Origin: an uncultured Chitinophaga sp.
GTDB lineage: Bacteria > Bacteroidota > Bacteroidia > Cytophagales > Cyclobacteriaceae
Direction: 5' to 3'
Length of the DNA stretch: 64,000 bases
Assembly (NCBI GenBank): GCA_902168205.1
Contig: CABHOK010000008.1
Coordinates: forward strand, 62,001-126,000
Shown here: positions 34,452-64,000 of the stretch, in pieces
Layout of the letters: every line of letters starts with the position of its first letter
Numbering within the stretch: position 1 is the first letter of the stretch
Translations under genes and position numbers: made by a program
Notes under the pieces: generated by a model
What the model was told of the DNA's origin: nothing
What the model saw: the letters and a program-made list of their open reading frames with translations, nothing else
The model's database searches: none

Positions 34452-34453
34452 GA

Positions 34454-34915
34454 CTATTTGGTTTTTGATGATGCCAGTATAACTGCTTCGCGAATACGAT
34501 GGTAGGTTCCACAACGGCAGATGTTACCGTTCATGGCAGTATATATTTGCTCTTCGGTTGGCTTGGGAGTTTTAGCAAGCAATGCTGCTGCAGACATGAT
34601 CTGTCCTGCCTGACAATATCCACATTGTGCTACGTCCACTTCATGCCACGCCTGCTGCACCGGATGATCGCCTTGCGCAGAAAGTCCTTCAATGGTAGTA
34701 ACGGCTTTTGTTCCTACAGCCGACACCGGCAATGAACAGGAACGCACTGCATTTCCATTGAGATGTACCGTGCACGCACCACACTGCGCAATGCCACAGC
34801 CATACTTCGTTCCTACCATGCCAAGATTATCGCGCAACACCCACAGCAACGGAGTATCGGCATCAGCATCCGTCTCGTAACTCCGTCCGTTAATTTGCAA
34901 TTTGTAATGAGCCAT
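34454..34915 (-). CDS. iorA: (2Fe-2S) subunit of the IorAB-type molybdenum hydroxylase
   Basis: The product is 153 residues. The N-terminal ferredoxin-like domain has the cluster motif [16 protein letters not shown] plus a later single Cys in VRSCSLPV. The C-terminal helical domain carries CGYCQAGQI and [13 protein letters not shown]. These eight Cys bind two [2Fe-2S] clusters that pass electrons from the molybdenum subunit encoded directly downstream. The subunit has no signal peptide, as usual, and would be exported in complex with IorB ('hitchhiking' through Tat). A periplasmic cytochrome acceptor gene is not adjacent here. Confidence 0.93.
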
Positions 34916-37561: not shown

Positions 37562-39238
37562 CTATGGACACCGGGGCGGAGTATTTGTCTCAACCTGGTG
37601 AGGTCCCAGAAATATTTCACGTATAGCATCAACATGGGCTTGTACAACAACACGTCTGGCATCACGTTGTGCCTGCGTCTGCATGTCTTGCGAGCGCTGA
37701 CCGCGTGGCATTTCTATGGTGATGATCCGCATAGCAGAACGGTTTCTTTCGGGATGCGCTGCATCGCATACGGCTGTACTGCCCCACCCTCCCAGGCTAA
37801 CGCCTTCACCGCGATGATCTGCAGATGCTTGTCCTCTGCTTCGCGTCTGTCTCTGCCCTGCCTGAGCAATAGGAGGATCCAGGGCATACGTGGTGTTTTC
37901 ATTTTGCGAACCTAAACGATTACCACTGACAGCTGCACCACGGCTTTGTGCAAGGCGGGCCATTTCAAGTGCAAGAGCACGGTCTGTGTCGTAACCTAAA
38001 GCAATCTGATTCTGATCGGTTCTCGGATCAGCAAATATACCGGCCGATGCATCACTATGCATAGCATGTACGCTCACAACTCTGCTCGGTCTGATCCGGT
38101 CGATAAGTTCCAGCAACATAACATTTTCTGCTTCGATGGTTCTGCCTCTGCTATCCACCGGGTTAGAAGGATCGAATGATCTCCCGAACTCGGGCATTTG
38201 GCGATTCGGATCTACAGCTGTACTGCGGGTATATCTGCCTACATTTGAATCGGCTTGAATGGCTGCCCGATTTCCTTCACGCACATGGGCATTGTCAGGA
38301 AACAGGCGAGGTACAATAGTCACCGTATAGTATGGACGTGGTCCTGTCCGCAATTGCGTAATAAGTTGTTCAACCACTTCAATTCCTGATAACTCAGATC
38401 CGTGAACACCTCCAATTACCAGCGCACGATTGGTGGTGGTGCCTGGAAATTCATAAGCATATATCCCCCTTCCTCCGGCTGAGCTTCCCAGGCGAACAGG
38501 ACGATTGCGTAACCATTCTGCGTATGCTGCGCTGTGTTGCGTAACCTGATCTCGCGGTAATCCGGTTTCCCTGCTGAAGTCATCCAGTATAAAGTCATGA
38601 ATAGGATCTCGTCTTGCGAATGGAACTCTTTGAATATAGCGTCTTTGTACGGTATTAGACTGCTGCACAACATGCGTGAGTTCATGCGCCAATAATCTTT
38701 TACCTGCTGATGACGCAGGCGCGAATTTTCCGTTATTAAAGTATATATCATTGCCGATAGTAAAAGCCTGAGCATTTAGTTGCGTTGATAGCGAAGCTGC
38801 TTCATTGTCTGTATGAATACGCACATTCGAAAAATCATTACTGAAACGACTTTCCATAAAACTCTTCATACCGCTGTCCAATACGCTGCCACTGCCACGG
38901 CTCGATGCTATCTGATCGCTGACAGACTCCGGTACAACTGTACTACCAGAGGATGCCTCTTTTTTTTGTATGAACGCTGCGAGCGGCTTGCGTTGAGCCC
39001 TCTCCTCTTCTTCACAATGTGAGCACTTCCGTTGTATATAACTGTTTTGTGGTATAGCCACTACTTTATTCGCTACAGCATCGGCCTCAGCTTCCAACGG
39101 ATCGTCTATTGCCCCAACGGTTAGTTTGCATTGTACCGGCAATACAACACTTTGTTCCTGCTCAATAGCCGGACACTGCGATGGAGAACTTGCAGCAGGT
39201 ACAACGCTGGATGATGGAGGCCGTGACGTTTCTTTCAT
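37562..39238 (-). CDS. eCIS cargo candidate: DUF4157 leader plus M14-like zinc carboxypeptidase
   Basis: The product is 558 residues. Residues 30-95 are the shared leader with Cys72-x-x-Cys75 in RKCSHCEEEE and AFIQKK at 88-93. Residues 118-193 are the DUF4157 'eCIS core' domain ending HELTHVVQQ. A linker (residues about 211-243; HDFILDDFSRETGLPRD) follows and is shared with the 654-residue protein at 41163. The C-terminal domain is M14-like: His279 and Glu282 (GGVHGSELSG), N-R-Q-M-P, His391 in VVSVHAMHSD and Glu509 in IITIEMPRG. That matches the zinc ligands, the Asn-Arg substrate clamp and the catalytic Glu. M14 enzymes remove C-terminal residues or cut peptidoglycan peptides. It is the last gene of the eCIS array. 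Confidence 0.85.
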   Translation of the reverse strand: MKETSRPPSSSVVPAASSPSQCPAIEQEQSVVLPVQCKLTVGAIDDPLEAEADAVANKVVAIPQNSYIQRKCSHCEEEERAQRKPLAAFIQKKEASSGSTVVPESVSDQIASSRGSGSVLDSGMKSFMESRFSNDFSNVRIHTDNEAASLSTQLNAQAFTIGNDIYFNNGKFAPASSAGKRLLAHELTHVVQQSNTVQRRYIQRVPFARRDPIHDFILDDFSRETGLPRDQVTQHSAAYAEWLRNRPVRLGSSAGGRGIYAYEFPGTTTNRALVIGGVHGSELSGIEVVEQLITQLRTGPRPYYTVTIVPRLFPDNAHVREGNRAAIQADSNVGRYTRSTAVDPNRQMPEFGRSFDPSNPVDSRGRTIEAENVMLLELIDRIRPSRVVSVHAMHSDASAGIFADPRTDQNQIALGYDTDRALALEMARLAQSRGAAVSGNRLGSQNENTTYALDPPIAQAGQRQTRSRGQASADHRGEGVSLGGWGSTAVCDAAHPERNRSAMRIITIEMPRGQRSQDMQTQAQRDARRVVVQAHVDAIREIFLGPHQVETNTPPRCP

Positions 39239-39262
39239 GATATAGTATATATCGTTATAGGG

Positions 39263-41131
39263 CTAAGGTCGCCGGGGACTGGTTAATGACAATACGAGCC
39301 TTGCAGCATTTACAACTTCTGTAGGACATGTAACCTCTGCGTAACTTTCCGGAACCGCGTGTTCGTAATCTTCCTGGCGCGAAGTCTCTTTCTCAAAAAC
39401 AATGGCTGCCCTTCGCAAAAGCGGGTATATAAGATCGGCCTGTTGAGCGGCAGTTAACCGTGGCAGTCGTTGCATTAAGGTCTCATCGCGGTGCACAGCT
39501 TCTGCTGGATTTGTTGAGAACTCCTGCGTTGCATGTCGGGCCAGTGGATCGCCCTCAATAGAATCATCTGGCAAAGAGTATAGTTCTCCTTCACCAAGGG
39601 GTGCGACCGAAGGAGTAACTCCGGACACACATGTGCCCGCTGCACCGGCAAGCCCGGCACATAGCTGCAGCAACCGTTGCTGAGCCGCATCAGCACGCGC
39701 CTGGGCAAGCAATGTATTACCCATAAATGTACTGCCTCTTCTTCTGCCCAGTGGTCCTTCCGGAGAAGTAAAGCCGAGGATCTGAGTTACACGATAACCA
39801 CGGGTGAGCAATTGCTGTATAGCCGCAATATTTTCCATGCTTTGCGCAACGTTGATTCTGTCGGTAGCATAGTTAAAGTATATATACTTGGATTGCCGAT
39901 CGGTTGATGTTACTGTTCGTGTTCTTGTTTCTGTATGTGCCGGGGTCAGGCGTTCACATTTAAAACGCGTGGAGATACGTTGCCGCAGACTGGTACATCT
40001 GAAGCGATCCTGACTACGTCCGGGTGTTATCCGTACGTTTGCCGTGATGGACCAGCCTTCATCATTTCCCTGACCTCGTAAGTCTACATCTAAAGGTCCT
40101 CTTCGGAGTCCTATACTTCCACCGCCACCTTGAACGCCTTCAGAACTGATGGAGACTTCACCCCGTGCTGTCAGACTAAATTCTCCGGATTGTGCAAATA
40201 CTATTTCAAGGAATGGAGTAGCTTCCGCAGAGCGAAGTATGCGCGATAATTCCGAACCCGATGCACCGCGAGTAATGGCGTCCAGTAGCTGTTGCGCTGC
40301 ACCTCTTGCTGCTTCGGGTATATTTGCTCCCAGGGTTACTTCACCTCGCAGGTCATCGGTACACCACGTGAGATTAACAAAAATATTATCCATGTTTATT
40401 CCGCCACCGAACCTGGGACGTTGCGTTGTACGGGTGGTAGTTGTATCCACTACTTTTGTTACTCTATAAGTTGCGCCTTCATGTTCTACCGTTGCTGTAT
40501 TGGGACCGGTTGCGCGGGCGCTGGTTCGCTGTATTTTACGTTGTATACCCTGTTGCTGTATCGTATGAGTTAACTCGTGGGCAAGCAGATATTTACCGGC
40601 ATTGGACTCCGGAGTATATTTCCCGGAATTGAAGTATATATCGTTCCCTACTGTAAACGCCTGCGCATTCAGGTCTTGTGACAACTGTGATGCGTACTGA
40701 CCGGTATGAATGCGTACATTGGAGAAGTCTTCTCCAAAACGACTTTCCATAAAACTTTTCGTGGAGCTGTCCAGTGTACTTCCGCTGCCGCGAGTGGATG
40801 CTATCTGGTTATTCACCGCCTCTGATACAACGGTACCACTACCGGACGATTCTTTCTTTTGTATAAACGAGGCCAGTGGTTTGCGCTGAGCTTTCTCCTC
40901 TTCTTCACAATGCGAACATTTACGTTGTATAAAACTATTTTCCGGCATGCGCATCACTTTATCGGCTATGGCATCGGCTTCTGCTTCCATCGGGTCGTCA
41001 ACTGCGCCAACGGTAAGTTTACATTGGATGGGTAGAACGATAGCATCCTGATCACTTCTTATTGTCTCCACAGGAGGTTGTGACGAAGCTTGTGTTTTTT
41101 GTGGTTGTTGATTCTGATGATGTTGTGTCAT
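39263..41131 (-). CDS. eCIS cargo candidate: DUF4157 leader plus OmpA-like C-terminal domain
   Basis: The product is 622 residues. Leader residues 31-95 contain Cys72/Cys75 and the core DUF4157 domain is at about 118-193 with HELTH at 185-189. The middle region (about 205-400) is beta-rich (IFVNLTWCTDDLRGEVTLG, GQGNDEGWSITANVRITPG) and was not recognised. Around residues 410-480 is an OmpA-like peptidoglycan-binding pattern: YIYFNYATDRINVAQSMENI and GFTSPEGPLGRRRGSTFMGN with A-R-A-D-A-A-Q-Q-R. This domain may hold the protein to peptidoglycan, in the producer or in a target bacterium. The last 140 residues, helical, are unrecognised. No enzymatic motif beyond DUF4157's HELTH is visible. Confidence 0.75.
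   Translation of the reverse strand: MTQHHQNQQPQKTQASSQPPVETIRSDQDAIVLPIQCKLTVGAVDDPMEAEADAIADKVMRMPENSFIQRKCSHCEEEEKAQRKPLASFIQKKESSGSGTVVSEAVNNQIASTRGSGSTLDSSTKSFMESRFGEDFSNVRIHTGQYASQLSQDLNAQAFTVGNDIYFNSGKYTPESNAGKYLLAHELTHTIQQQGIQRKIQRTSARATGPNTATVEHEGATYRVTKVVDTTTTRTTQRPRFGGGINMDNIFVNLTWCTDDLRGEVTLGANIPEAARGAAQQLLDAITRGASGSELSRILRSAEATPFLEIVFAQSGEFSLTARGEVSISSEGVQGGGGSIGLRRGPLDVDLRGQGNDEGWSITANVRITPGRSQDRFRCTSLRQRISTRFKCERLTPAHTETRTRTVTSTDRQSKYIYFNYATDRINVAQSMENIAAIQQLLTRGYRVTQILGFTSPEGPLGRRRGSTFMGNTLLAQARADAAQQRLLQLCAGLAGAAGTCVSGVTPSVAPLGEGELYSLPDDSIEGDPLARHATQEFSTNPAEAVHRDETLMQRLPRLTAAQQADLIYPLLRRAAIVFEKETSRQEDYEHAVPESYAEVTCPTEVVNAARLVLSLTSPRRP
40861..41034. repeat. Leader-module DNA repeat, copy in the 622-residue cargo gene
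   Basis: These 174 bp align without gaps to 42857-43030 with about a dozen substitutions, nearly all synonymous transitions. The segment encodes the shared Cys-x-x-Cys leader. It lies inside the coding sequence. Confidence 0.8.
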
Positions 41132-41162
41132 GAGATTATCGTTGTTGTAATCTATAAACTAG

Positions 41163-43127
41163 CTAAGGAGTTGTAACGGGTGCCGTAGGTTGATCACGAA
41201 AGAAATGTTCCACAGCATCTCGTGTTGTTGGAGGTGGTAACGTTTCATCCAGTGTTGCTTTTGCAAAATCAGCTATAGCAAATGCATTTGTCATACTTAT
41301 ACCAGAATGCATCCAAGAAGGTCTTCCCATGAGAAACAAAACGAAGGTAGTTTTGATACGATCTGTTTCAGATAAACTAAACCATGCAGGACAGAAATCA
41401 ATTTCTCCGGAGGGCGATTGCGTTGCCAGAGAAACTGCAGAAGAAGTTACAGTTCCAGCTCCCGAAATTCCCACGGCACCGCTACTGCACGGTGCGCTAG
41501 CAGCGCCCTGGCAATTGAGAACTGAACCGAGTGAAGAGTGATAAGACGATGTATACAGGTTGGTAAATAAACTATTAAATGCCCGGAGATCCGCTGTAGA
41601 CGTAACGAGAGGTAAATGTCTGTTCAGGAAATCCAGCTCAGCCTGAGGCAGGTCTGTTAATGGAGCGCTGCCTCTTAATCGGTCAGACATCTGTCCAATT
41701 AATTGCCATCCTCGTCTCGTCCAGAGTTCAGCTCTTGCAAATGCAGAGAGTACAAATGCCGTATTTGTGCAATTTGTTCTGTCAGGTTGAGCAGGAACGA
41801 GATTGCCCGTTGTCCGGTTATGAAGTGCTTCTGCCAAAATTCCATAAGACTCCGCGTTGTCCAGCGCTTCTTCCGGAGTAAGATGATGAAAAACGCGTTC
41901 GTGGTCATAGGCCCTGTCGGTAATACCGTTTCCTTGTGTTACAGTATTACGTATCCCTACATTTGGAATAACGGCATGTCCCATCTCATGAATAAACGTA
42001 GCTATATTTCTACCGGTACCACACAAGTGTATTTCGTACGGAGTATCTACATAGGCAGCTACATGACTTGATCCTGATGCCCTGCATTTATGTCCACCAC
42101 AAAATATAGTGACCCGGTTAGGCTCCCGTAACATTCTTCCGATGTGGTAAAACCGTGATGCGAGTAATTGGACATATAGTTCATCTGTGGTATGAAATGT
42201 CTGTTGCAGTGCCGAAGCTATTCGGGTATGATCTGCAGAAGGCGCTGTTCCCGGAGTATTGAAAATCTGGTCGGCCGCAAATCCTACTAACTGACTATAT
42301 ATATCATCGATCCATGCAAGCGATTCATTTACTATATCGATAACAAATTGCGTATTTGAAGCGCAAGTGGTATCAATTATCGGATTAATGAATTTGCTAT
42401 TCAACCACGTTCTATACTCTTCACTATGCTGTGATGCCCGGTCACGAGGTACACCGGTTTCGCGGCTGAAATCGTCAAGGATAGGATCATGTATACGGTC
42501 ACGAGGGATTCGTTGTATAAATGGCTTCTTCGAAATTACATTGTCCTGTTGCTGTACGACATGCGTCAACTCATGCGCCAACAGATGTTTCCCTTCTGAT
42601 GATTCGGGACTATACTTACCTGAATTGAAGTATACATCATTTCCAATCGTGAAGGCCTGCGCATTCAATGCAGAAGAAAACGCTGCAGCCTGACTGTCGG
42701 TATGAACGCGAACGCCTGAGAAGTCTGCTCCCAACTGTGTTTCCATAAAATTTTTGACAGGCTTGTCCAGCGTGCCGCCATTTCCGCGGGTTGATGTAAT
42801 CTGAGCGCCTAGCGTATCAGACACCACGGTACCACTACCCGATGTTTCCTTTTTTTGTATAAACGAAGCCAGCGGTTTGCGCTGAGCTTTCTCCTCTTCT
42901 TCACAATGCGAACACTTGCGTTGTATAAAATTATTTTCCGGCATGCGCATTACTTTATCAGCCATGGCATCGGCTTCTGCTTCCATCGGATCGTCCGCTG
43001 CGCCAACGGTAAGTTTACACTGGATGGGTACCAGTATACTTTGATCACGTTCTGCCATACTGAGCGAAGGCTTAGACTCCGCTGCCGGAGTTGATTGCGT
43101 CTGCTGTGAAAGAGAAACGTTCTTCAT
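41163..43127 (-). CDS. eCIS cargo candidate: DUF4157 leader plus M35-like (aspzincin) metalloprotease
   Basis: The product is 654 residues. Leader (residues 32-95, Cys72/Cys75) and DUF4157 core (118-193, HELTHVVQQ) are in the same register as in the 622- and 558-residue proteins. The linker RIHDPILDDFSRETGVPRD (about 211-229) is shared with the M14-type cargo. The C-terminal catalytic part has FIHEMGHAVIP (His380, Glu381, His384) followed by G-I-T-D-R-A-Y and PEEALDNAESYGILAE. This matches the HExxH...GTxDxxY...NADSY pattern of M35/lysine-specific metalloendopeptidases, with the Asp as third zinc ligand. The remaining 200 residues are unrecognised. It is a likely toxin cargo. Confidence 0.85.
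   Translation of the reverse strand: MKNVSLSQQTQSTPAAESKPSLSMAERDQSILVPIQCKLTVGAADDPMEAEADAMADKVMRMPENNFIQRKCSHCEEEEKAQRKPLASFIQKKETSGSGTVVSDTLGAQITSTRGNGGTLDKPVKNFMETQLGADFSGVRVHTDSQAAAFSSALNAQAFTIGNDVYFNSGKYSPESSEGKHLLAHELTHVVQQQDNVISKKPFIQRIPRDRIHDPILDDFSRETGVPRDRASQHSEEYRTWLNSKFINPIIDTTCASNTQFVIDIVNESLAWIDDIYSQLVGFAADQIFNTPGTAPSADHTRIASALQQTFHTTDELYVQLLASRFYHIGRMLREPNRVTIFCGGHKCRASGSSHVAAYVDTPYEIHLCGTGRNIATFIHEMGHAVIPNVGIRNTVTQGNGITDRAYDHERVFHHLTPEEALDNAESYGILAEALHNRTTGNLVPAQPDRTNCTNTAFVLSAFARAELWTRRGWQLIGQMSDRLRGSAPLTDLPQAELDFLNRHLPLVTSTADLRAFNSLFTNLYTSSYHSSLGSVLNCQGAASAPCSSGAVGISGAGTVTSSAVSLATQSPSGEIDFCPAWFSLSETDRIKTTFVLFLMGRPSWMHSGISMTNAFAIADFAKATLDETLPPPTTRDAVEHFFRDQPTAPVTTP
42857..43030. 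repeat. Leader-module DNA repeat, copy in the 654-residue cargo gene
   Basis: This is the partner of the segment at 40861-41034, about 93 percent identical at nucleotide level by my own alignment. The flanking coding sequence outside the leader/DUF4157 region diverges completely. Confidence 0.8.
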
Positions 43128-43165
43128 AATCTATAGCTTGATTATGTATATTACGTCAATAATAT

Positions 43166-44401
43166 TTATGCCATCGCGGAGTCGCCATCGGGTATCGGAA
43201 AGTCTCCAACCGGTGGACGCACGCGTGCCGGCATGGTGGCACGCATGCGTGTACGCCATGTATTTATATTGTTTCGAATGAAATTATACCGTGCCGGAGA
43301 GCGCTGTTGAAGTACAATGGGAGTGTTTATATAGGCTGCTATCGATTCAGCAAAATCTTCACTGGGACCTCCATCGACAGCGTATCGCGACATGGGCTGC
43401 TCGCTAACGGTATCATCAAACCAACGACCTGTTGTTATTCGATGTTGAGCCGGTGGTTGTGTTTGACTCGCGATTGCAGCGCGTACGGTTGGCTGGCCTA
43501 TATCATATAGCTCTGCCGGGTTGCCAATCCATCCTACCGCTGCTCTGAAATCAACAAAGGTCTGGTTATTCTGCGATGCCATAGCCGCTTCGGCAACACC
43601 ATGTCCCAGCTCATGTGTGATGGTGCGCGCTATATCTCGCTCGCGGTTCCTGGTTGCTATGGGTGCTCCGCCCGGAGTGTTGATTCCGATAGCAGGATTC
43701 GTTGAACCACTAAAGGCCTCGAAGATCGTGAGGCTTCCTGCTCCGAACATCGCACCTATAGTTGAATCCGGAACGCCAACACCTGCATCATTGGGCTCGT
43801 AAAATACTTTGAAGAAAGTAATGGATGTAATCGTAGGTATAGCACCCAAAGCATCAGCCATATCTTCAATCCCATTGATGATACTGGTATAGTCATCAGA
43901 TGCCGTTCCCGGATCCCATCGCTGCCAGCCTGGAATTGTAACCGTGGGTATATTTCTTCTTGTGCTGCGTTGTTCCTGTTCTTGTTGTGTACCCGTATGT
44001 ATATCACTAACGCCAAAATGCGTACGAACATAATTATCGAATTCTGTCCGGCTTATATTTCCGGTTGGCCGGTATCGCTGTGTGATGACAGGTGTTACAG
44101 TTGGTAGCGGAGCCACGGGCACCGGTCTGGGTTGTCGTTGAATAACGGGCATGCCTGATGTCGTTCCGTGTACAGCAGGCAATGATTGGTTTACTTTTCG
44201 TTGAATGAATGCCGATAGATTGCTACGGTGCGAGGTAGCGTCCGTCATAATACTATTTTCCTGCCGTAAACCTGTTGCAAGCGAGAGATCATACAAAGGC
44301 ATATATATATCGTTTGTCTGTTGAGCGGGGTCGCTATAGCTGCGGTTTCCCAAGGCGACAGATTCAGGTTTTGCCGGTATAGGTGCGATTGTTTGATACA
44401 T
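43166..44401 (-). CDS. eCIS cargo candidate without DUF4157: zinc metalloprotease-like protein
   Basis: The product is 411 residues. It lacks the Cys-x-x-Cys leader and DUF4157 domain but keeps short motifs seen at leader ends in its neighbours: SAFIQRK at residues 63-69 and PVIQRQ at 85-90. A Pro-rich linker (PRPVPVAPLPTVTP) follows. The catalytic motif is ITHELGHGVAEA (His263, Glu264, His267), and about 105 residues later GPSEDFAESIAAYINTP supplies a Glu that could be the third ligand, as in gluzincins. The C-terminal part YNFIRNNINTWR resembles the end of lethal-factor-like zinc peptidase domains. It lies between two DUF4157 genes, 3 bp from the upstream one, so it is probably also a payload. 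Confidence 0.7.
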   Translation of the reverse strand: MYQTIAPIPAKPESVALGNRSYSDPAQQTNDIYMPLYDLSLATGLRQENSIMTDATSHRSNLSAFIQRKVNQSLPAVHGTTSGMPVIQRQPRPVPVAPLPTVTPVITQRYRPTGNISRTEFDNYVRTHFGVSDIHTGTQQEQEQRSTRRNIPTVTIPGWQRWDPGTASDDYTSIINGIEDMADALGAIPTITSITFFKVFYEPNDAGVGVPDSTIGAMFGAGSLTIFEAFSGSTNPAIGINTPGGAPIATRNRERDIARTITHELGHGVAEAAMASQNNQTFVDFRAAVGWIGNPAELYDIGQPTVRAAIASQTQPPAQHRITTGRWFDDTVSEQPMSRYAVDGGPSEDFAESIAAYINTPIVLQQRSPARYNFIRNNINTWRTRMRATMPARVRPPVGDFPIPDGDSAMA

Positions 44402-44404
44402 ATA

Positions 44405-45589
44405 TTAACCGTTTGTGTGCGCTGCACAAGATGGAGGTGCTGCTCTTCCGGATACACGAAGCGCGAATGATTCAAAACAACTTGCATCAGCTCTTCTCAA
44501 GGCATCCACTTCATGTCGTGCCATGTGAAACCAGATATGAAATGGTTCGTGCAGAAGAGTGGCACCTTGCTCGTCCGGTGTATCCCAGAAAGTCTGACAA
44601 AGCACGATCAACCTGTTTCCCGGACAAGAGAAAGCAAAGTCATTGCCACAATTACCAGTCTGGCATCCAACGAGGGAAACATTACCGATTCCCAGACCCA
44701 TGTATCGTAAGTAGCCCGATTGAAGTGTCTCTCTTACTCTGACAAACCTCTGGATCTGTTGTCGTATTAGTCCCCGATGCGCTACGTTGTTAAAGGACAA
44801 CCCCAGTTCCTCATTTAGTATCAACTCGGCATTTGCGTCTACGGGATTTCCGGCTACAGCATTTGCCAATTGTGTTGTTAAAGTGTCTTCGGCATTTTGA
44901 GCCAGTTGAATCGCATCCGTGTCAGCATCGCGTATAGCATCGATAACTTCTTGTCGTGTCAGACCTAACCTGGTTAGCATGGGCTGTGTTGTTACCACAT
45001 TTGCGTCAATGACTCTTCGTTGAATCTGTTTTCTTTGTAAATCGGTTCCTTGTTGTACAACGTGCGTCAACTCATGCGCGAGCAAATGTTTTCCTTCGGA
45101 GGACTCCGGACTATATTTACCTGTATTGAAGTATACATCATTGCCAACCGTAAACGCCTGCGCATTTAGTTCGGACGACAACGCAACGGCCTGGCTATCG
45201 GTGTGAATGCGTACGCCGGAGAAATCTGTACCAAAACGACTCTCCATAAAATTTTTCGTAGGTGTATCGAGCGATGTACCACTTCCCTTCGTCTCCTGAA
45301 TTTTATTAGACACTGCATCGGAAGCTATACTTGTATTTCCGGATGCTTCTTTCTTTTGTATGAAGGACGTTATCGGTTTTCGTTGTGCCTTCTCTTCCTC
45401 TTCACATTTAGAACACTTACGTTGAACGATGCCGTTTGCAGGCAGGCGCATCACCTGGTCTGCAACCGCATCGGCTTGTGCTTCCATTGAGTCGTTAACG
45501 GAACCAACCGCCAGCTTGCATTGGATATTGGCGGCTGCGGATGAATGGCTTTTACTATCATTGTTATTCTTCGAAAGCTCGCTCTCCAT
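44405..45589 (-). CDS. eCIS cargo candidate: DUF4157 leader plus small HExxH metalloprotease domain
   Basis: The product is 394 residues. The leader (residues 20-82) has Cys59/Cys62 in RKCSKCEEEE and SFIQKK at about 75-80; the DUF4157 core is at about 105-180 with HELTHVVQQ. The rest (about 195-394) ends in a metalloprotease motif: LIVLCQTFW, then LLHEPFHIWFHMA (His347, Glu348, His351) and later ADASCFESFALRVSG. The latter occupies the place of the NADSY motif in M35-like peptidases, but the third-ligand Asp is not obvious. It is the first cargo gene after the ATPase and is separated from the next gene by 3 bp. Confidence 0.8.
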   Translation of the reverse strand: MESELSKNNNDSKSHSSAAANIQCKLAVGSVNDSMEAQADAVADQVMRLPANGIVQRKCSKCEEEEKAQRKPITSFIQKKEASGNTSIASDAVSNKIQETKGSGTSLDTPTKNFMESRFGTDFSGVRIHTDSQAVALSSELNAQAFTVGNDVYFNTGKYSPESSEGKHLLAHELTHVVQQGTDLQRKQIQRRVIDANVVTTQPMLTRLGLTRQEVIDAIRDADTDAIQLAQNAEDTLTTQLANAVAGNPVDANAELILNEELGLSFNNVAHRGLIRQQIQRFVRVRETLQSGYLRYMGLGIGNVSLVGCQTGNCGNDFAFSCPGNRLIVLCQTFWDTPDEQGATLLHEPFHIWFHMARHEVDALRRADASCFESFALRVSGRAAPPSCAAHTNG

Positions 45590-45610: not shown

Positions 45611-47113
45611 TTACATCGTCTTCCCTTCTTTTTTAAACTCCTTGCGGATACCCTGTAACAGATCATCCACTGTTACCACGTTGTCATTGCGATTCAGTGC
45701 CAGCAGCGAGGCAAACTGAACAACATTTATAATAGATCCTCCCGAAAGTTCATACTGTTGTGCGATACGCTCCATGTCACTGCTGGACGGTGGCTGACAT
45801 ACTTCACTGAATGCACCGTTCCACAGACGAAGGCGTTCGCGCGGCTGCGGTTTTTGGAAATGTATAATGGACTGCAATCGTCTTGTGAAAGCTTCATCGA
45901 CATTGTTGCGCATGTTCGAAGCGAGTATAACAAGTCCCGGGTAGTCTTCGAGACGTTGCAATAAGTAAGCTATCTCCTGGTTGGCATACTTATCATGTGC
46001 ATCCGATATACCGGTTCGTTTACCAAACAAGGCATCGGCTTCATCGAAGAAAAGTATCCAGTTCTTATTCTCGGCTTTGCGGAATACTTTTTCCAGGTTC
46101 TTCTCAGTCTCTCCTATATATTTCGAAATCACCATTGACAGATCAACCCGGTATACATCGAGATTATATAGTTTGCCGAGCAATGCGGCCGTAAGCGTTT
46201 TACCAGTACCTGGTGGACCATGAAATAAAGCTTTATAGCCTGGCTTAAGTTTCTTATCCATCCCCCACTCTTCATATAGTGTCTTTCCATACTTTAACCA
46301 CACGCGAAGTTCATCGAGTTGTTGTGCGGTGAATTCATCCACCACGAGATCGGTCCACTCCATTTTTGTCGTAAGGCGTTTCGCAGGGAACTCCATGCTG
46401 AATGCAGGCTTGCGAATATTACCGGTAGTAAAGAAATCTACATACTCATCAGTAATGAGAATGGAACTGCTATAGAAAGGTTCGCTGCCAGAGCTGTGGT
46501 CAAGTTGAATGATGTTGTGTGCTGAGAATATATGATCAGGCTCAAACAATCTATATACTCTGAAACGGTAACTCAAATCATTACCCGCCAGTAAGAACAG
46601 TGCTGTCTCAATGGTGGGAACGAAGCCACTGTGCCGGTTTCCCTTTACGCCACCGAACTCGGTATAGCCTCTGCCCAGCGGTTTGTTGATCGAGAAGAAT
46701 ACATCCAGTAAATGCGGTTGCACATGTGGAATGATGGCCAGGATAAGGACAAGCCGTTCGTCAGCATTGAGCTTGTAGTAGTTAACGAACTCAGCATATA
46801 CGGAAGTATCTTGTGTGAGGTCCGGGATGGGTATATTTTCGCCCAGCCCAACCGTTGTGGAGTTGTCCAATTGAGTGCCTTTCGTACCGGAGCTTCGGTT
46901 TAATATCTTGTTGATCCAGCTATGTTCTTTCTCCTGCTGGATTTCGAGTTTGTCTTTCGGAAAGTAATCCTGCAGACGTTCGTTTACCACGCGGGCGAAC
47001 CAGCCGATCTCGCGTGCAAGTGTCTCTGCATTTCGATCAAGTGGAGAACCCGTCATACCAGCCTCCGACACGATCAGTTCTTGTCCTATACTATTTTGTT
47101 TACCATTCAACAT
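45611..47113 (-). CDS. eCIS AAA+ ATPase (Afp15-like)
   Basis: The product is 500 residues. The N-terminal 230 residues form a helical/mixed domain; the C-terminal half is one AAA+ module. Walker A is FHGPPGTGKTLTAALLG (about 298-306 for the P-loop), Walker B WILFFDEADALFG, sensor 1 VILASNMRNNVDEA and Arg finger region FTRRLQSIIHF. The same arrangement is found in Afp15/Pvc15, needed for assembly of contractile injection particles and possibly cargo loading. Its start overlaps the tape measure gene by 14 nt. It sits between the structural genes and the cargo genes, the usual place in such loci. Confidence 0.92.
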   Translation of the reverse strand: MLNGKQNSIGQELIVSEAGMTGSPLDRNAETLAREIGWFARVVNERLQDYFPKDKLEIQQEKEHSWINKILNRSSGTKGTQLDNSTTVGLGENIPIPDLTQDTSVYAEFVNYYKLNADERLVLILAIIPHVQPHLLDVFFSINKPLGRGYTEFGGVKGNRHSGFVPTIETALFLLAGNDLSYRFRVYRLFEPDHIFSAHNIIQLDHSSGSEPFYSSSILITDEYVDFFTTGNIRKPAFSMEFPAKRLTTKMEWTDLVVDEFTAQQLDELRVWLKYGKTLYEEWGMDKKLKPGYKALFHGPPGTGKTLTAALLGKLYNLDVYRVDLSMVISKYIGETEKNLEKVFRKAENKNWILFFDEADALFGKRTGISDAHDKYANQEIAYLLQRLEDYPGLVILASNMRNNVDEAFTRRLQSIIHFQKPQPRERLRLWNGAFSEVCQPPSSSDMERIAQQYELSGGSIINVVQFASLLALNRNDNVVTVDDLLQGIRKEFKKEGKTM

Positions 47114-52031: not shown

Positions 52032-55000
52032 TTACTTGTCTGATTTCTTTGACCGGCCCGGACGTTTCTTTACAGGTATATCTTTCTTCCCGGTTGTCTT
52101 CACTGACGATAGTGATCGGGTTACATCTTTACTGCGTTCGGTACTTCGCTCTGTTAACAAAGCAGATTCATGTGTAATTACTTTGTCGTTTGATTCGGAT
52201 GACCGTATCGATGCTACACGCCTGGATTGTTGCAATTTTTCACAAGGCGTCAGGCGCGGTTTCTCTTCGTAAGGTATAATGATATGTCGTGGTGCCGATA
52301 CGAGAATAGAACGCGGTGTAGACGGTTGCGCGACAATTTCTCCTTTGAATTCAGAATCTTCACGGAGTAAATGTTCAAAGTCATTGCATCCACACAAACT
52401 GCTGAGTGTCTCAATCAGATCTTTATCTTCCGTATCGTTGTCAGGTGAATTGATCTGCAAAAGGTATATTTCCCACGCGCGATTCACCGGTGTCTGCACC
52501 TCCTTGAATGTATACCCCGCGAAGCTGAATGCCAGTGTAACATCCGTTGTCGAATCAGTCCTCAATGTAAAGGCACCATTGGTATCTGTAACCGTACTAT
52601 TGGTAGTGCCTTTGATTTGTACGGTTACACCGGGTAACGTTGCTTTGCTGCGACTGTCGTACACAACACCGGTTATGATAGGGCGGCCATCCGGAGATTG
52701 CTCCGGCACAGATTGATCTTCCGGCATATCTTCCTCACCGGTACAACATTCATCTTTACACACTACCATAATGAAGTCGGTGATGAAATCAACATACGGT
52801 CTCTCTTCGATGAAGTCGATAATCGATGAAGCGTATATCTTCTGTCCAAATACTATATCTGCAGTCTCATCAAATGCCCAGGGCGTGAGGAAGTGAACGA
52901 TCTCTTCATTGAGCTTCTTGAGATAATAACCCTTATCTATACCCGGATAGAATTTTACCCGGAAGAAGACAAGTACCTGTTCATACACCGGGTTCTTCGC
53001 ATGAACCTTTACAAACGGTGATTTACGCTTCTTGATATAGGACTCTATCTCCAGTAACGTTCTGCGACCTGTTTTCGGCTGCAGTGGGTTGACTGCATTC
53101 CTATTTTTAAAATTAGCGATGGGTACAATGAGTATATGTCCCGGTGCAACCTGCGGACCACAGCAATCTTCTACTCTTGCCGGATTGTAAGGACTGTTCG
53201 GATCGGTATGTCTGCATAAACATTCCGGATCAACGTGTGGTATAGCTTTTACTTTATAGATGGAAGGAAAACGATCGAGTATAAGATGCTCGTAGTCCCA
53301 CACATTGATAGCGCGTGCTTTGTGACGGAGCCGTTCGCTCACGCGTGTATAAAACTCTTTGCCTGTCTCACGATGTTTACCGTCCCACGAAGCGAAGGGC
53401 TGAATTACTTTACTCACTTCGGCCACCTTTACAGCAAGTTTGCTGATGCTGCCTGCAGCCAGTGCGTTGTCAAAGTGTGTCTGATCATTATCCTGGTCTT
53501 CGAACGTTGCTATCACGGCCTGCGCCACAACATCTACCAGTTTCGGTATACGATTGGCATGCTCGGTAACACTTGCACACAGCCAGTATAAACCGTTGGT
53601 GATGATGGTATTGTTATTGGTGATGTCAGCCGGTATATCAAGTTTTACGATACCCGTTGTCTGAAAACCAAACGTATCATCCGACACTATATTCTCGCCT
53701 TTCAATGGATGCCATTCGTTGTTAACGAGGTATGACCAGTGAATTACCGGTGGATCATTGTCTTCATCTTCTGCACTCCCATCTACAAATTGGAATAGCA
53801 ATGATACACTTTGAAGCGGCTTGAGATTTTCGAGTCCGATAAAAAGCATACCTTCTTCCTGTAACAAACTTGAATACTGGTTGGCACTTCCGGTAATTGT
53901 CTCGGTAACGCCACTGGCATCGATCATCAATCGTTCAAGCGCAGTAATTTGTCGGTTTGTATTTTTAGCGCTGTGTACAGTCGAAGTGATAACCGGGTAA
54001 TCCGATTTAGGACCGGATACTATAGGTTTGATTCCGATGTCGGTATATTTGGCATACGGATCCTGGTAGGTAAACTGCGGAAATAATTTACCCTTGGTAT
54101 CTGTGAGCAGATCATTGCCATTACGCAGTTTTGTTATAGCCGAAGTGGATGCGACTGTTGGTGCCAGGTCACGTGCCAGTATACGTGTTTGTATTCGCGC
54201 ATTAAGATCAGCTTCCAGCACACCGAACGGATATACATGAAAAAACTGATCTATACCCGCTTCCGGTCTTTCAAGGACTGAATGATAACTGACCGAAATT
54301 TCTTTTACTTTGAGAAACTGCGCAGCTTCCTGCATGTTCTCGTATACTCCTTTATTGGTTGTCGAGAATATTGGTATATTAAATTCCACTTGCAGAAAAC
54401 CTTTCACAGAGGCATTGGTATATGGCTGCTCGGTTATGAGCGGCTTACGATTGAGCTCCAGTATATTACCTTCCTCACCCAGTAAAAGATTTCTGGCTAA
54501 ACCGTCTGTCGTATTCGTGTACATACCTTCCGGAACAGTTATCCATGTTCTTGATTTAAGTACACTTGCTATAAATAAACTGTTATTATTTACAGCTGCT
54601 AACTCAATGCCATTATCATTGGCAGGATTGGCCAATCGTATATGGAGCGATAGTTCATCCAGTGTCTTATTGAAAACTTCCTGGCTGCCGACATACAGAC
54701 TCTTACCACGGTTCGGATATGCTGTAAATGGATCAAACGCCTTGGAGGGATCTAACATGCCATCATCGTTCTGAAGTGTCAGAACTTTCAGTCCATCAAA
54801 AATAGGTTCTATCGTTTGGTCTCCGGAAGCTACTGAACCGACCCGAACTTCCAGTGATGCACTTTGAAATGCAAGTTTACCAAAATCATTTTCGCTGATC
54901 AGTACGGAAGGGCCCAGCAATACCTGCATAACAGGCTGCATTGTGACGAAAGCGCCTTCGTGTATAGCGCTATCAAACGGTATAACGCCTGGCAAGCTTG

Positions 55001-56564
55001 CCGGTAGATATATATATAGCGTGTCGGTATCAAAATAGTAACTACCTTCTGTTTCCTGTGTTTCGGCAAATCTGGTTTCACCTTTAATGGGAAGTGACTT
55101 GAACTGGGCGTCTGTCATACGCTTCTCAACGGCCAGCCATTTCTTCTCTCCTGTAAACAGTATACGTACTTGACGTTCGGTTTCCGGGTTACCACCGGTA
55201 TATACTTTGCCCAGGTCTTGCAGACGATACGCAATCAAACGATTACCACCCTGCAATAATAACTGTGGCGATGCTATAGCAAAACCAATGGCAGCTTCGT
55301 TACGCCACTCCAATTGATTCCGTACGATGTCTATAGCCTGGCATATATTCTTATAATCCAGATTACGATTCAGGCGTCTGCCAAACGTTGGCCACTTGGG
55401 ATAGGGATCGGTAAATTTCTCGCCATAACCATCCAGCGAGTTCGCTACCGGTTGTGCTGATATTGATCCTATAAAGGTCACATCATCCTCAACCTGTTTT
55501 TCGATGAATATAGTTTTCAGTTCTTTTACCTTCGCCTGATTTACCACCAGGTCGTTTTCCGTTTTATATACTTGCTCTTTACCGGAAGCATCCTTACCTG
55601 CCAGCAACGCGGTGCCCGGACCAACGGCATACTCAGCTACATCTTTAGCCAGTTCAAAGACTATATGCACGCGATCGGGTATAGAATCTTTTTCCGTGAG
55701 TTGCAGTACATCTCTGTAATAGAAGTCTAGCATGCGTCCGGTGATACCATTCATTTGCTCCTGTGCTAACCTGAACAGCTTCAGGAACGCAATGAAGAGT
55801 GCCATGTGTGGCTGATGAGCGGGATATTGCTCCAACGCAAAAGCAAAGTACTTGGAAGACTCCGCTGTCAGCTTTTGTATAAAACCATAGAATGAAAGGA
55901 ATATATCCTCAACGTAAAGCGCTGCATGCCTGATCTTGGCTGCCTCATCAACGCCCTGGTATATATTTCCTTCGGCTACCGCAGGTTCATCGAGTCCCCA
56001 AAGTGTTTTATTTTTAATAGCGGAATAATCAAGGTCAAGTTTTTTACCGGGATCAACCAGCTTGAATCCTTCTTCATACGCAGTAATTTTCTGAACCTGC
56101 GCCTTTAACTCTGATTGTATCGCCAGCGTGAGTGTTTCATAGAGCGGATTCTCCGGTATGGCGAGTGTATACCAACGATCGATGCGGGCAACCATGCCGA
56201 GCACCGGACTATATAATGCCGCATATATATCGGCTTCCGGATCTTGCTGAAGACTGCGGAAGGTTTCTTCAAAGTCTTTTCGTATCTGTGCTATATCGGT
56301 CAGTGCTATACCGGCTGCGATCACGGCCATATCGCGGCTGAAGAACTCGCGCCAGCTGACTTTAGCGGCAGGTGTTGTATCGCCCGGGTGACTTTCCGGT
56401 ATATCGTAGAACCGGATCTGTGCGGCATATCGTTTAATGAACACCAATAGCTCTTCGGTGCTTCGCTCATCTATGGGAGCGTAAGTCGGATCAAGTGCCT
56501 TGAGGTAACGGCCTAACTGGCCTGAACCATCGCGCACAATATCGGTATGACAATGGCAGCTCAT
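52032..56564 (-). CDS. Baseplate J/gp47-like protein (Afp11-like) with C-terminal carboxypeptidase-regulatory-like domain and basic tail
   Basis: The product is 1510 residues. The central region (about residues 1080-1280) is the baseplate J-type domain (WDGKHRETGKEFYTRVSERL, AINVWDYEHLILDRFPSIYK). Then comes a segment KSPFVKVHAKNPVYEQVLVF and a W-F-like C-terminus of the J fold. At about 1290-1368 a CarboxypepD_reg-like domain follows: ITGVVYDSRSKATLPGVTVQ, then GTTNSTVTDTNGAFTLRT and LAFSFAGYTFKEV. The last 140 residues are charged and low complexity, ending KKRPGRSKKSDK. The start overlaps the gp25 stop by 4 nt. The fusion of this Ig-like domain to a baseplate protein is odd (see findings). 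Confidence 0.85.
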   Translation of the reverse strand: MSCHCHTDIVRDGSGQLGRYLKALDPTYAPIDERSTEELLVFIKRYAAQIRFYDIPESHPGDTTPAAKVSWREFFSRDMAVIAAGIALTDIAQIRKDFEETFRSLQQDPEADIYAALYSPVLGMVARIDRWYTLAIPENPLYETLTLAIQSELKAQVQKITAYEEGFKLVDPGKKLDLDYSAIKNKTLWGLDEPAVAEGNIYQGVDEAAKIRHAALYVEDIFLSFYGFIQKLTAESSKYFAFALEQYPAHQPHMALFIAFLKLFRLAQEQMNGITGRMLDFYYRDVLQLTEKDSIPDRVHIVFELAKDVAEYAVGPGTALLAGKDASGKEQVYKTENDLVVNQAKVKELKTIFIEKQVEDDVTFIGSISAQPVANSLDGYGEKFTDPYPKWPTFGRRLNRNLDYKNICQAIDIVRNQLEWRNEAAIGFAIASPQLLLQGGNRLIAYRLQDLGKVYTGGNPETERQVRILFTGEKKWLAVEKRMTDAQFKSLPIKGETRFAETQETEGSYYFDTDTLYIYLPASLPGVIPFDSAIHEGAFVTMQPVMQVLLGPSVLISENDFGKLAFQSASLEVRVGSVASGDQTIEPIFDGLKVLTLQNDDGMLDPSKAFDPFTAYPNRGKSLYVGSQEVFNKTLDELSLHIRLANPANDNGIELAAVNNNSLFIASVLKSRTWITVPEGMYTNTTDGLARNLLLGEEGNILELNRKPLITEQPYTNASVKGFLQVEFNIPIFSTTNKGVYENMQEAAQFLKVKEISVSYHSVLERPEAGIDQFFHVYPFGVLEADLNARIQTRILARDLAPTVASTSAITKLRNGNDLLTDTKGKLFPQFTYQDPYAKYTDIGIKPIVSGPKSDYPVITSTVHSAKNTNRQITALERLMIDASGVTETITGSANQYSSLLQEEGMLFIGLENLKPLQSVSLLFQFVDGSAEDEDNDPPVIHWSYLVNNEWHPLKGENIVSDDTFGFQTTGIVKLDIPADITNNNTIITNGLYWLCASVTEHANRIPKLVDVVAQAVIATFEDQDNDQTHFDNALAAGSISKLAVKVAEVSKVIQPFASWDGKHRETGKEFYTRVSERLRHKARAINVWDYEHLILDRFPSIYKVKAIPHVDPECLCRHTDPNSPYNPARVEDCCGPQVAPGHILIVPIANFKNRNAVNPLQPKTGRRTLLEIESYIKKRKSPFVKVHAKNPVYEQVLVFFRVKFYPGIDKGYYLKKLNEEIVHFLTPWAFDETADIVFGQKIYASSIIDFIEERPYVDFITDFIMVVCKDECCTGEEDMPEDQSVPEQSPDGRPIITGVVYDSRSKATLPGVTVQIKGTTNSTVTDTNGAFTLRTDSTTDVTLAFSFAGYTFKEVQTPVNRAWEIYLLQINSPDNDTEDKDLIETLSSLCGCNDFEHLLREDSEFKGEIVAQPSTPRSILVSAPRHIIIPYEEKPRLTPCEKLQQSRRVASIRSSESNDKVITHESALLTERSTERSKDVTRSLSSVKTTGKKDIPVKKRPGRSKKSDK

Positions 56565-63422: not shown

Positions 63423-64000
63423 TCAATCAGCAAAGTTCATTTCAGTAATAGCCGGTGCTGCTTCTTTACCTCTCGTATCGAATACGGTAAGCATGTTCGC
63501 TTTGTATACTACGCTGGGTATATATTTACCGCCCAGTGTAGCCCAGAGATTGTTCTGCTGCTCGAAGGTTAAACTCGTTAGCCTGAAACTGAGGCGTTCA
63601 ATGAGTTGCCAGGGTTTATTTACCGGGTCGCTCACATCGGCATTGAGAGCAGGAAACTTCGATTCGTCAAATACATTATATACTTGAAAGAAAGCCACAA
63701 CATCAGACAAGTCGCGTAACGCTGTCTGATAGTTCGTGCTCTGTGCTATAAACAGAATGGACAGATCAAGTTCTACCGGAGGGTTGAGTTTCATGAACTG
63801 CTTATTCTCGATCGGTACATAATATGGACGCTTGCCTTCTCTCCTTTCTTCATCCACACCAATCAACATCATGGTGATGTGCATGGCATTATTCAGATTG
63901 TAAGTGCCGTCAGGCAGATATACCGGCTTGAGATCTACTACGTTGTTCAGAGCGTAGTTGCCGGGGTCCTGCTCGCGATCTACGATATAGGCATCCAGTT
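63423..64000 (-). CDS. DUF4255 (Pvc16-like) tail terminator/cap protein, 5' end outside window
   Basis: The reverse strand is open from the stop at 63423 to the window end, 191 residues visible with no start codon needed; the N-terminal part lies beyond base 64000. Visible segments, including LDAYIVDREQDP, YALNNVVDLKPVYL, MHITMMLIGVDEER, NPPVELDLSILFIAQSTNY and LSDVVAFFQVYNVFDES, match the DUF4255 N-terminal domain of Afp16/Pvc16. This protein closes the distal end of sheath and tube and determines termination. An internal ATG at 63884 is not the start, because the open frame and the conserved sequence continue upstream. Confidence 0.9.
   Translation of the reverse strand, partial: LDAYIVDREQDPGNYALNNVVDLKPVYLPDGTYNLNNAMHITMMLIGVDEERREGKRPYYVPIENKQFMKLNPPVELDLSILFIAQSTNYQTALRDLSDVVAFFQVYNVFDESKFPALNADVSDPVNKPWQLIERLSFRLTSLTFEQQNNLWATLGGKYIPSVVYKANMLTVFDTRGKEAAPAITEMNFAD

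What the first reader, a model, noticed from the sequence alone, without database searches (positions are those of the whole stretch)
37562..45589. Modular cargo cassette: one leader and DUF4157 core, several different C-terminal domains
Four proteins share residues that align in register: RKCSHCEEEE or RKCSKCEEEE, a F-I-Q-K-K site, and DUF4157 ending HELTH(V/T)(V/I)QQ. In three of them the Cys pair is exactly at 72/75 and HELTH at 185-189. The C-termini differ completely (M14-like, OmpA-like, M35-like, HExxH). This looks like a conserved loading tag plus a swappable payload; DUF4157 is known as an eCIS-associated domain, the Cys-x-x-Cys leader far less so.
Basis: partly seen in the sequence, partly recalled or inferred. 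Interest (0 to 1): 0.85.

Follow-up and report, generated by a model that had tools for sequence, protein, structure and literature searches.

The report
Shared delivery module on syringe cargo proteins
Four neighbouring cargo proteins of a bacterial molecular syringe share one N-terminal delivery module fused to different end domains, and the most conserved part of its "leader" looks like a displaced piece of a zinc-enzyme active site, which may explain what this widespread but unexplained domain is.

Summary
Four of five cargo genes at the 3' end of an eCIS operon encode one ~195-residue module (60-72% identical) on different payloads. Leader-plus-DUF4157 cargo with swapped C-termini is already published (AlgoCIS Cgo1/Cgo2). 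Three points seem new.

(1) The leader is conserved from Bacteroidota to archaea: a 32-residue box (PhiQxKLxVGxxxDxYExEADxVADxVM), then PhiQ[RK]K repeats, with CxxC in 130 of 206 linkers. It tracks eCIS: 57 of 60 box genomes have the tape-measure gene against 18 of 335 others.

(2) Ten proteins without the DUF4157 core keep the box (payloads include RNase A-like, lipase, ankyrin). The window's P4 has neither, but keeps two PhiQR sites.

(3) A sister clade carries the box behind the core, 26-28 residues after HExxH; no core among 104 from the phylum has both. A class-1 profile weakly matches BepA (M48) in two pieces in swapped order, the box on third zinc ligand Glu-201.

I read the box as the displaced third-ligand helix of a circularly permuted DUF4157 gluzincin. 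Whether box or repeats also address loading is untested.

The parts
44405..45589 (-). P5, 394-aa cargo: box 45434-45529, linker with VQRKCSKCEEEE and FIQKK 45272-45433, DUF4157 core 45047-45271, payload (M35/M76-like below cut-off, second HExxH) 44405-45013
43166..44401 (-). P4, 411-aa cargo that lacks box, CxxC and DUF4157; keeps FIQRK (44195-44209) and VIQRQ (44132-44146); payload with HELGH
   Evidence: its homologue L125:8260-9648 (32% identity over 331 residues) has the end of the box, CxxC, FIQKK and DUF4157
41163..43127 (-). P3, 654-aa cargo: box 42933-43028, linker with IQRKCSHCEEEE and FIQKK 42771-42932, core 42543-42770, payload (M35-like, below cut-off) 41163-42512
39263..41131 (-). 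P2, 622-aa cargo: box 40937-41032, linker 40775-40936, core 40547-40774, payload (no convincing Pfam match; OmpA-like look by eye only) 39263-40516
37562..39238 (-). P1, 558-aa cargo: box 39044-39139, linker 38882-39043, core 38651-38881, payload (M14/AspA-like, just below cut-off) 37562-38623
45611..47113 (-). AAA ATPase directly upstream of the cargo genes, candidate loader (Pvc15-like role inferred)
   Evidence: PF00004
47100..48467 (-). Contractile injection system tape measure protein
   Evidence: PF19268, 369.6 bits
48508..52002 (-). 1164-aa protein, probably baseplate (weak TIGR02243 match, far below cut-off)
52032..56564 (-). 1510-aa baseplate J-like protein with a carboxypeptidase-regulatory-like domain near its C-terminus
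   Evidence: PF04865 (below cut-off), PF13715
56561..56980 (-). gp25-like baseplate wedge protein
   Evidence: PF04965
57309..58946 (-). Spike/hub protein
   Evidence: PF04717, PF05954
58977..59657 (-). CIS tube protein
   Evidence: PF19266
59834..60736 (-). Two inner-tube proteins (59834-60301 and 60305-60736)
   Evidence: PF06841
60789..62231 (-). Sheath protein
   Evidence: PF17482, PF04984 (second below cut-off)
63423..63884 (-). Cap protein (Pvc16-like)
   Evidence: PF14065

Best explanation
P1, P2, P3 and P5 are eCIS cargo proteins. Each has a common N-terminal delivery module: box helix, acidic linker with PhiQ[RK]K repeats (often with CxxC), DUF4157 core, a PhiQR site shortly after HExxH, then an exchangeable payload. 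The box is not a free-standing tag by origin. Its ExxAD helix is most likely the third-zinc-ligand helix of the DUF4157 gluzincin, placed in front of the HExxH core by one circular permutation, so the variable linker is a loop that ties the two halves of one domain together. The module is carried with the payload into the particle tube by the neighbouring AAA ATPase and delivered on contraction. Shown here: the module, its spread, its tie to eCIS, no core with a box on both sides in the window's phylum, fixed spacing in the sister clade, weak M48-like matches in swapped order. Known for a relative: such proteins fill the tube (AlgoCIS). Inferred: that the box is a helix, zinc binding by its glutamate, the permutation, the role of the ATPase. 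Unknown: whether the box or the PhiQ[RK]K repeats are what the loader recognises.
For: Box gapless over 32 residues, E16/E18/A19 invariant in 44 chosen rows. Phylum loci: 79 of 104 HExxH cores have the box in front, 23 behind, 2 neither, 0 both. The 23 behind-type cores are one side of a branch, SH-aLRT 100, with HExxH-(26-28)-E in 23 of 23 against 103-387 residues in 220 class-1 proteins. The box HMM trained on class 1 scores above 0 bits in 21 of 23 such C-sides and in 0 of 83 C-sides of the other cores; hhalign box against C-box 77% over 14 columns. Class-1 profile against PDB: top hits are five BepA (M48) sequences, E 0.11-0.22, core on the HExxH region and, as a second piece, the box on QQNEQEADRIGIQVL; third zinc ligand of BepA is Glu-201 (PMC8423444, one figure-legend passage). 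Against an M48 alignment made here, box and core hit the ExxAD and HExxH sites, in order for class 2 and swapped for class 1. Five of six C-box cores given show weak matches (below cut-off) to M91 or M78 that reach the box. VgrG2b C-ter, a family often annotated DUF4157, is a solved gluzincin with its Glu after HExxH (PMC6899460 passages). AlgoCIS Cgo1/Cgo2 share NTD and DUF4157 and fill the tube (PMC8894135 passages).
Against: All M48 matches are weak: BepA E 0.11, box piece about 0 bits, vimentin next at 0.85; hhalign probability 1.8% for box against M48, over 10 columns, and the 21 M48 rows were picked by a pattern that contains HExxH and ExxAD; A5 and A7 alone find nothing in PDB up to E 10. 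Box-core coupling: top score inside the row-shuffled null (2.27, null maximum 2.36), third score just above it (1.86, 1.81), and no excess at the HExxH helix in 70% subsets (2.3 of 10, 2.0 expected). In the 80 named loci exclusivity is not perfect: 134 N-only, 2 C-only, 2 both, 15 neither of 153 HExxH cores, partly tandem modules and short or mis-started ORFs, but several cores with intact HExxH have lost the box. Ten core-less proteins keep the box, 9 of 10 with E..AD exact, which a pure zinc-ligand role does not explain. No structure prediction could be run.
Confidence: 0.6

Rival explanations
1. The leader is an independent loading address: box helix and/or PhiQ[RK]K repeats are bound by the AAA ATPase or tube, and DUF4157 is a separate domain.
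For: Ten proteins with box and no eCIS_core by Pfam: CdiA-CT RNase A (L225), Lipase_3 (L224), ankyrins (L189), DUF6861 (L169) and six others without a payload match except SH3_3 in L169; two of them (L224, L225) have no DUF4157 gene in the 16 kb read. Box genomes are eCIS genomes. Of 14 core-only proteins that I looked at, 11 with at least 70 residues in front of the core all keep PhiQ[RK] there, 3 with 2-18 residues do not; box-only proteins keep it in 7 of 10 (26 sites against 2.2 shuffled). Leader and core are more alike within a locus (0.71, 126 pairs with unrelated payloads) than between loci (0.54, 20,063 pairs), and even than between loci with homologous payloads (0.56, 718 pairs).
Against: Box order and fixed spacing in the C-box clade, M48-like matches. 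Box-less cargo exists (P4, L124:3084, L128:7707). The nearest leader was in the same locus for only 65 of 134 proteins, and the direct test of locus against payload was not significant: 37 against 40 proteins, 25 of 43 loci. PhiQ[RK] alone does not mark cargo: 7 of 382 ORFs near cargo genes, 3 of 570 elsewhere, 4.15 expected in all.
Confidence: 0.25
2. PhiQ[RK] sites are processing sites: DUF4157 cuts module from payload (in cis, or in trans for P4) during loading or after injection.
For: Sites flank the core and avoid it: linker 510 against 36 shuffled, 60 residues after the core 189 against 17, core 2 against 22, payload 174 against 122; in 152 of 194 proteins a site lies within 150 residues after HExxH, the first at a median of 12; P4 has two such sites without a core.
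Against: No cleavage data; Cgo1 growth inhibition did not need its metalloprotease motifs (PMC8894135, passages); several C-box proteins have a PhiQxK just before the box, so the site may be part of the fold.
Confidence: 0.12
3. CxxC (with the Cys of IQCKL in the window) is a cysteine switch or redox clamp that keeps the zincin latent in the producer.
For: CxxC in 130 of 206 linkers, 107 linkers with it directly behind PhiQ; cysteine-switch latency by an N-terminal segment is known in pappalysins (PMC6949598, search listing with start of abstract).
Against: 76 of 206 linkers lack CxxC; 8 of 10 box-only proteins lack it in the 150 residues after the box.
Confidence: 0.05
4. Ordinary paralogy: tandem duplicates with exchanged ends, the leader being conserved only by recent descent.
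For: Four paralogues in one operon, 64-72% DNA identity in leader plus core.
Against: The box is conserved across many phyla including archaea.
Confidence: 0.03

Closest known systems
AlgoCIS cargo Cgo1 and Cgo2 (Algoriphagus machipongonensis, PMC8894135, passages read)
   Same: Two eCIS cargo proteins with a similar predicted-disordered NTD, a central DUF4157 and different CTDs; fill the tube lumen
   Different: Four module cargos plus a module-less one here; the box and PhiQ[RK]K motifs are not described in the passages read; I did not have the Cgo sequences to test for the box
eCIS-associated toxins with N-terminal DUF4157 (Geller 2021 PMC8213781; Danov 2024 PMC11297309; passages read)
   Same: N-terminal DUF4157, C-terminal exchangeable domain, 3' end of the operon
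   Different: [quoted passage not shown] here a 32-residue box is conserved across phyla
PVC/Afp N-terminal signal peptides (PMC11495950, passages read)
   Same: N-terminal segment needed for loading with the Pvc15 ATPase
   Different: Disordered, 50-70 residues; no box seen by eye in the one peptide shown in the passages; the paper calls such peptides an Afp-homologue-specific feature
VgrG2b C-terminal metallopeptidase (PMC6899460, passages read)
   Same: Gluzincin of a family often annotated DUF4157, HExxH plus one more Glu
   Different: Third ligand Glu-983 lies after HExxH (935-939); in class-1 cargo the candidate Glu lies 103-387 residues before it
BepA / M48 peptidases
   Same: HExxH and ExxAD sites match the core and the box
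   Different: Order is reversed in class-1 cargo; similarity is weak (E 0.11)
DUF6647 and Tox-MPTase5 mini-zincins (PMC11467057, passages read)
   Same: Placed beside DUF4157 in the Peptidase MA clan; an invariant His or Glu upstream of HExxH was suggested as third ligand
   Different: Other families; no permutation, box or eCIS link stated in the passages read

Membership tests
eCIS_core (DUF4157, PF13699) | Match above the curated cut-off of 22 bits | tested here: met
   P1, P2, P3, P5 at 110-114 bits; P4 none
eCIS cargo | Encoded at the 3' end of an operon with tube, sheath, spike, baseplate, tape measure, AAA and cap | tested here: met
eCIS cargo | Present in the tube lumen of particles | not testable with these tools
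   needs particle purification and mass spectrometry or cryo-EM
Gluzincin (M48-like, clan MA) | HExxH zinc site | tested here: met
   HELTH in all four
Gluzincin (M48-like, clan MA) | Third Glu ligand (ExxAD in M48) near the HExxH helix in the fold | tested here: inconclusive
   Candidate E..AD in the box (217 of 227 box proteins with a core); weak swapped-order match to BepA and M48; coupling inconclusive; no structure
Gluzincin (M48-like, clan MA) | Third ligand after HExxH in sequence | tested here: not met
   Class 1 including the window has the candidate in front; the 23 C-box cores have it behind. So not filed as an M48 member
PVC/Afp signal peptide | Disordered, hydrophilic N-terminal segment that loads cargo via Pvc15 | not tested
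   No disorder prediction or loading assay run; an AAA gene is adjacent

The most novel reading that the evidence does not exclude
The leader box is a dual-use element: the displaced third-ligand helix of a circularly permuted DUF4157 zincin and, on its own, the shared address by which eCIS from bacteria to archaea recognise cargo, so that DUF4157-free toxins scattered in the genome can be recognised by this box alone.
Probability: 0.3. Interest if true: 0.8.

Novelty: new variant of a known kind. Interest (0 to 1): 0.6.

Why it matters
DUF4157 is a hallmark domain of eCIS cargo, and its role is said to remain to be studied (PMC8213781) or elusive (PMC11297309) in the passages read. If its domain is really box plus core, the 79-position Pfam model covers only part of it, and mutation of HExxH alone tested an incomplete site. 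The box also gives a 32-residue signature that finds cargo-like proteins lacking DUF4157, some with no DUF4157 gene nearby, which makes the loading question directly testable with deletions.

Tried and rejected
Ruler idea (PhiQ[RK] spacing equal to the tube rise): spacings are broad with modes at 8, 10, 12-14 and 22; rejected. PhiQ[RK] as a stand-alone marker of cargo genes: 10 hits against 4.15 expected, too few to use. Leader follows locus rather than payload: not significant, 37 against 40, confounded by recent orthologues; a cut at payload identity below 60% looked favourable by eye in that list but was chosen after seeing the data, so it is not used. Residue coupling between box and core: the first run looked suggestive at the HExxH helix, the null and subsets made it inconclusive. 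Phage origin of the module: no match in 50,697 phage records; 87 plasmid records match P2's box-core, each below 60% identity. PHROGs: no match. NCBIfam: no leader family. Solved relatives of P2's leader-core and of one C-box protein by single sequence: none up to E 1; P1 payload none, P3 payload only ClpC N-domain chains at E 0.68-0.91, taken as chance. A first box regex had an error and found nothing (repaired).
Full report
WHAT IS THERE. The window lies in an unnamed 7.3 Mb genome. Its minus strand from 63884 to 37562 holds an eCIS operon: cap, a 392-aa protein without Pfam match, sheath, two inner tubes, CIS tube, spike, gp25, a baseplate J-like protein, a 1164-aa protein, tape measure, AAA ATPase, then five cargo genes in a row with gaps of 3-38 bases between them (21 after AAA). 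Four of them (P5, P3, P2, P1) share an N-terminal module; the second in order, P4, does not.

OBSERVATION. Leader plus core are 60-72% identical between the four. PF13699 is found four times in the genome, and the leader box four times, in the same four genes. Payload labels are weaker than written: M14/AspA and M35 are below Pfam cut-offs and OmpA has no Pfam match; one M14-type homologue is above cut-off. P1 and P3 share 39 residues beyond the core.

ANATOMY OF THE MODULE. In 34 class-1 proteins, four of them the window's own, the leader holds a gapless block, here called the box: PhiQxKLxVGxxxDxYExEADxVADxVMxMP (found by a pattern, so the core letters are partly by construction; the profile hits are not). 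In 206 unique class-1 proteins the linker between box and core holds 510 PhiQ[RK] sites against 36 expected after shuffling; the core 2 against 22; the 60 residues after the core 189 against 17; the payload 174 against 122; other ORFs 777 against 536. CxxC is in 130 of 206 linkers, in 107 directly behind PhiQ. In 152 of 194 proteins a PhiQ[RK] follows HExxH within 150 residues, the first at a median of 12. Linker length runs from 39 to 260 residues in 71 proteins.

SPREAD AND TIE TO eCIS. Of 395 genomes of the phylum, 81 have DUF4157, 60 the box and 75 CIS_TMP. All 60 box genomes have DUF4157; 57 of 60 have CIS_TMP against 18 of 335 others (the first line of that output, with 58 and 17, was a hand count that the recount corrected). 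G197 and G264 have the tube; G179 was not tested for it. In 126 genomes of a cyanobacterial phylum sample 14 have the box and 13 of these the tube, against 4 of 112; the exception, G421, has one 155-aa box ORF and neither DUF4157 nor tube. In 130 genomes of an archaeal phylum sample 3 have the box, all with tube (the rest not searched for the tube). A scan of one genome per species returned 80 loci from Bacteroidota, Pseudomonadota, Cyanobacteriota, Nitrospirota, Chloroflexota, Actinomycetota, Fibrobacterota, Myxococcota, archaea and others; these are the best 80 of 560, from a capped scan with the pattern L[LI]AHELTH[TV], ranked by likeness to the box-core query, so box frequency in them is biased upward.

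BOX WITHOUT CORE, CORE WITHOUT BOX. In the phylum loci 79 of 81 box genes have a core; in the 80 named loci 135 of 143; in nine further stretches 13 of 19 (several were chosen because a core was missing). That is 16 box genes without core, one counted twice (L189:3959 is L232:7087). Of the 15 distinct ones I dropped five: L092:15835 (partial box), L188:5830, L195:9190 and L227:6914 (83-155 aa) and L202:9380 (core in the next ORF). Ten proteins of 252-1095 aa remain, with no eCIS_core in Pfam: among them CdiA-CT RNase A, Lipase_3, ankyrin and DUF6861 payloads; six have no Pfam match. Nine of ten keep E..AD exactly, and seven of ten keep PhiQ[RK]. Conversely core-only proteins exist. I looked at 14: 11 with at least 70 residues before the core all keep PhiQ[RK] there, three L188 ORFs with 2-18 residues do not; L074:10938 among them has a weak box by the later measure, and L192:8268 has a box further downstream; second cores of tandem proteins and L202, L122, L123 were not in that list. 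P4 is the extreme: its homologue L125:8260-9648 (32% identity over 331 residues) has the end of the box, the CxxC linker, FIQKK and DUF4157, while P4 and its 65%-identical relative L124:4595-5848 lack the core but keep traces of two flanking sites.

WHAT THE BOX IS. A second class of DUF4157 proteins has no box in front but a look-alike behind: in phylum loci 79 cores have it in front, 23 behind, 2 neither, 0 both (of 104 with HExxH, at 8 bits; two more cores without HExxH, one of them cut by a contig end, are set aside). The C-box HMM was trained on 12 of these, but the class-1 box HMM alone scores above 0 bits in 21 of 23 and in 0 of 83 C-sides of the other cores. The 23 are one side of a branch (SH-aLRT 100; 210 cores, N-box rows thinned, 80 columns, quick search, 125 of 207 inner branches open), whereas loss of the box is scattered. 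In all 23 the E of the box follows HExxH by 26-28 residues, the kind of fixed spacing that a zinc ligand needs (inference). Five of six C-box cores given show weak Pfam matches, below cut-off, to M91 or M78 that reach the box. The class-1 profile finds BepA first in the PDB sequences (E 0.11): the core on the HExxH region and, separately and later in BepA, the box on QQNEQEADRIG. BepA's third zinc ligand is Glu-201, which is the E of that stretch in chain 6sar if its index equals residue number (inferred). With an M48 alignment of 21 proteins made here, box and core fall on the ExxAD and HExxH sites, in sequence order for class 2 and swapped for class 1, each over 8-10 columns with low probability. 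I conclude that the box is probably the third-ligand helix of the DUF4157 zincin, displaced by one permutation. Against this stand the weak scores, the box-only proteins, the intact HExxH in box-less cores, imperfect exclusivity in the named loci (2 both, 15 neither of 153), and an inconclusive coupling test.

HOW IT WORKS, MOST LIKELY. Made next to the AAA ATPase, the cargo is loaded into the tube by its N-terminal module (inferred from PVC and AlgoCIS work: passages of PMC11495950 and PMC8894135), carried with its payload, and released on contraction. Which element the loader reads is open: box, repeats or both. Leaders are more alike within a locus than between loci (0.71 against 0.54), which fits adaptation to the own particle but also local duplication; the nearest leader was in the same locus for 65 of 134 proteins and the direct test was not significant.

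LITERATURE. Library searches for DUF4157 (24 papers), DUF4157 with contractile injection (19), effector loading and leader, Afp18 with loading, conserved motif with tube lumen, zinc ligand, permutation and M48, and cysteine, disordered and third zinc showed no title or abstract start that reports this box, the PhiQ[RK]K repeats or a permuted DUF4157. I saw passages of eight papers, no whole text. PMC11467057 places DUF4157 in the Peptidase MA clan and suggests an upstream third ligand for two other families, so an upstream ligand as such is not a new idea. PMC11566945 reports five DUF4157 proteins depleted from the secretome of an archaeal sheath mutant. Only open-licence PMC papers were searched.

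Noticed in passing
L175:4156-10944 and L153:48-8228: Proteins with tandem modules (box-core-box-core and core-box-core), the kind of intermediate that permutation by duplication would give.
   Followed up: partly
L114:19418-19999 and L117:15466-16818: Cargo-like ORFs beside C-box cargo in which the core seems cut out, the flanking PhiQRK and part of the box remaining.
   Followed up: partly
L122:6291-10259: DUF4157 core that has lost HExxH (reads QALAH) and has no box.
   Followed up: no
pre-box region of class-1 proteins: FF occurs before the box in 88 of 204 N-termini against 23.4 shuffled; not in the window's four proteins.
   Followed up: partly
L189, L169, L230 (similar in L188:7552): A further upstream motif of the form LQRxxGNxAVxRL before the box in archaeal and Chloroflexota proteins; Q[RK]xxGNxx[VT] in 8 of 204 N-termini, 0.0 shuffled.
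   Followed up: partly
L124: Closest relative of the cassette: AAA, cargo, 195-aa ORF, M14-type cargo without box and CxxC but with FIQKK, P4 homologue, P2-like cargo, followed by a 153-aa and a 723-aa ORF that look like the molybdenum-dehydrogenase genes found in the window at 32286-34915 (by eye in L124).
   Followed up: partly
52032-56564: Baseplate J-like protein with a carboxypeptidase-regulatory-like domain near its end (PF13715), which I find unusual for a baseplate.
   Followed up: no
35112-37217: Protein with a type IX secretion C-terminal sorting domain directly after the cargo genes (PF18962).
   Followed up: no
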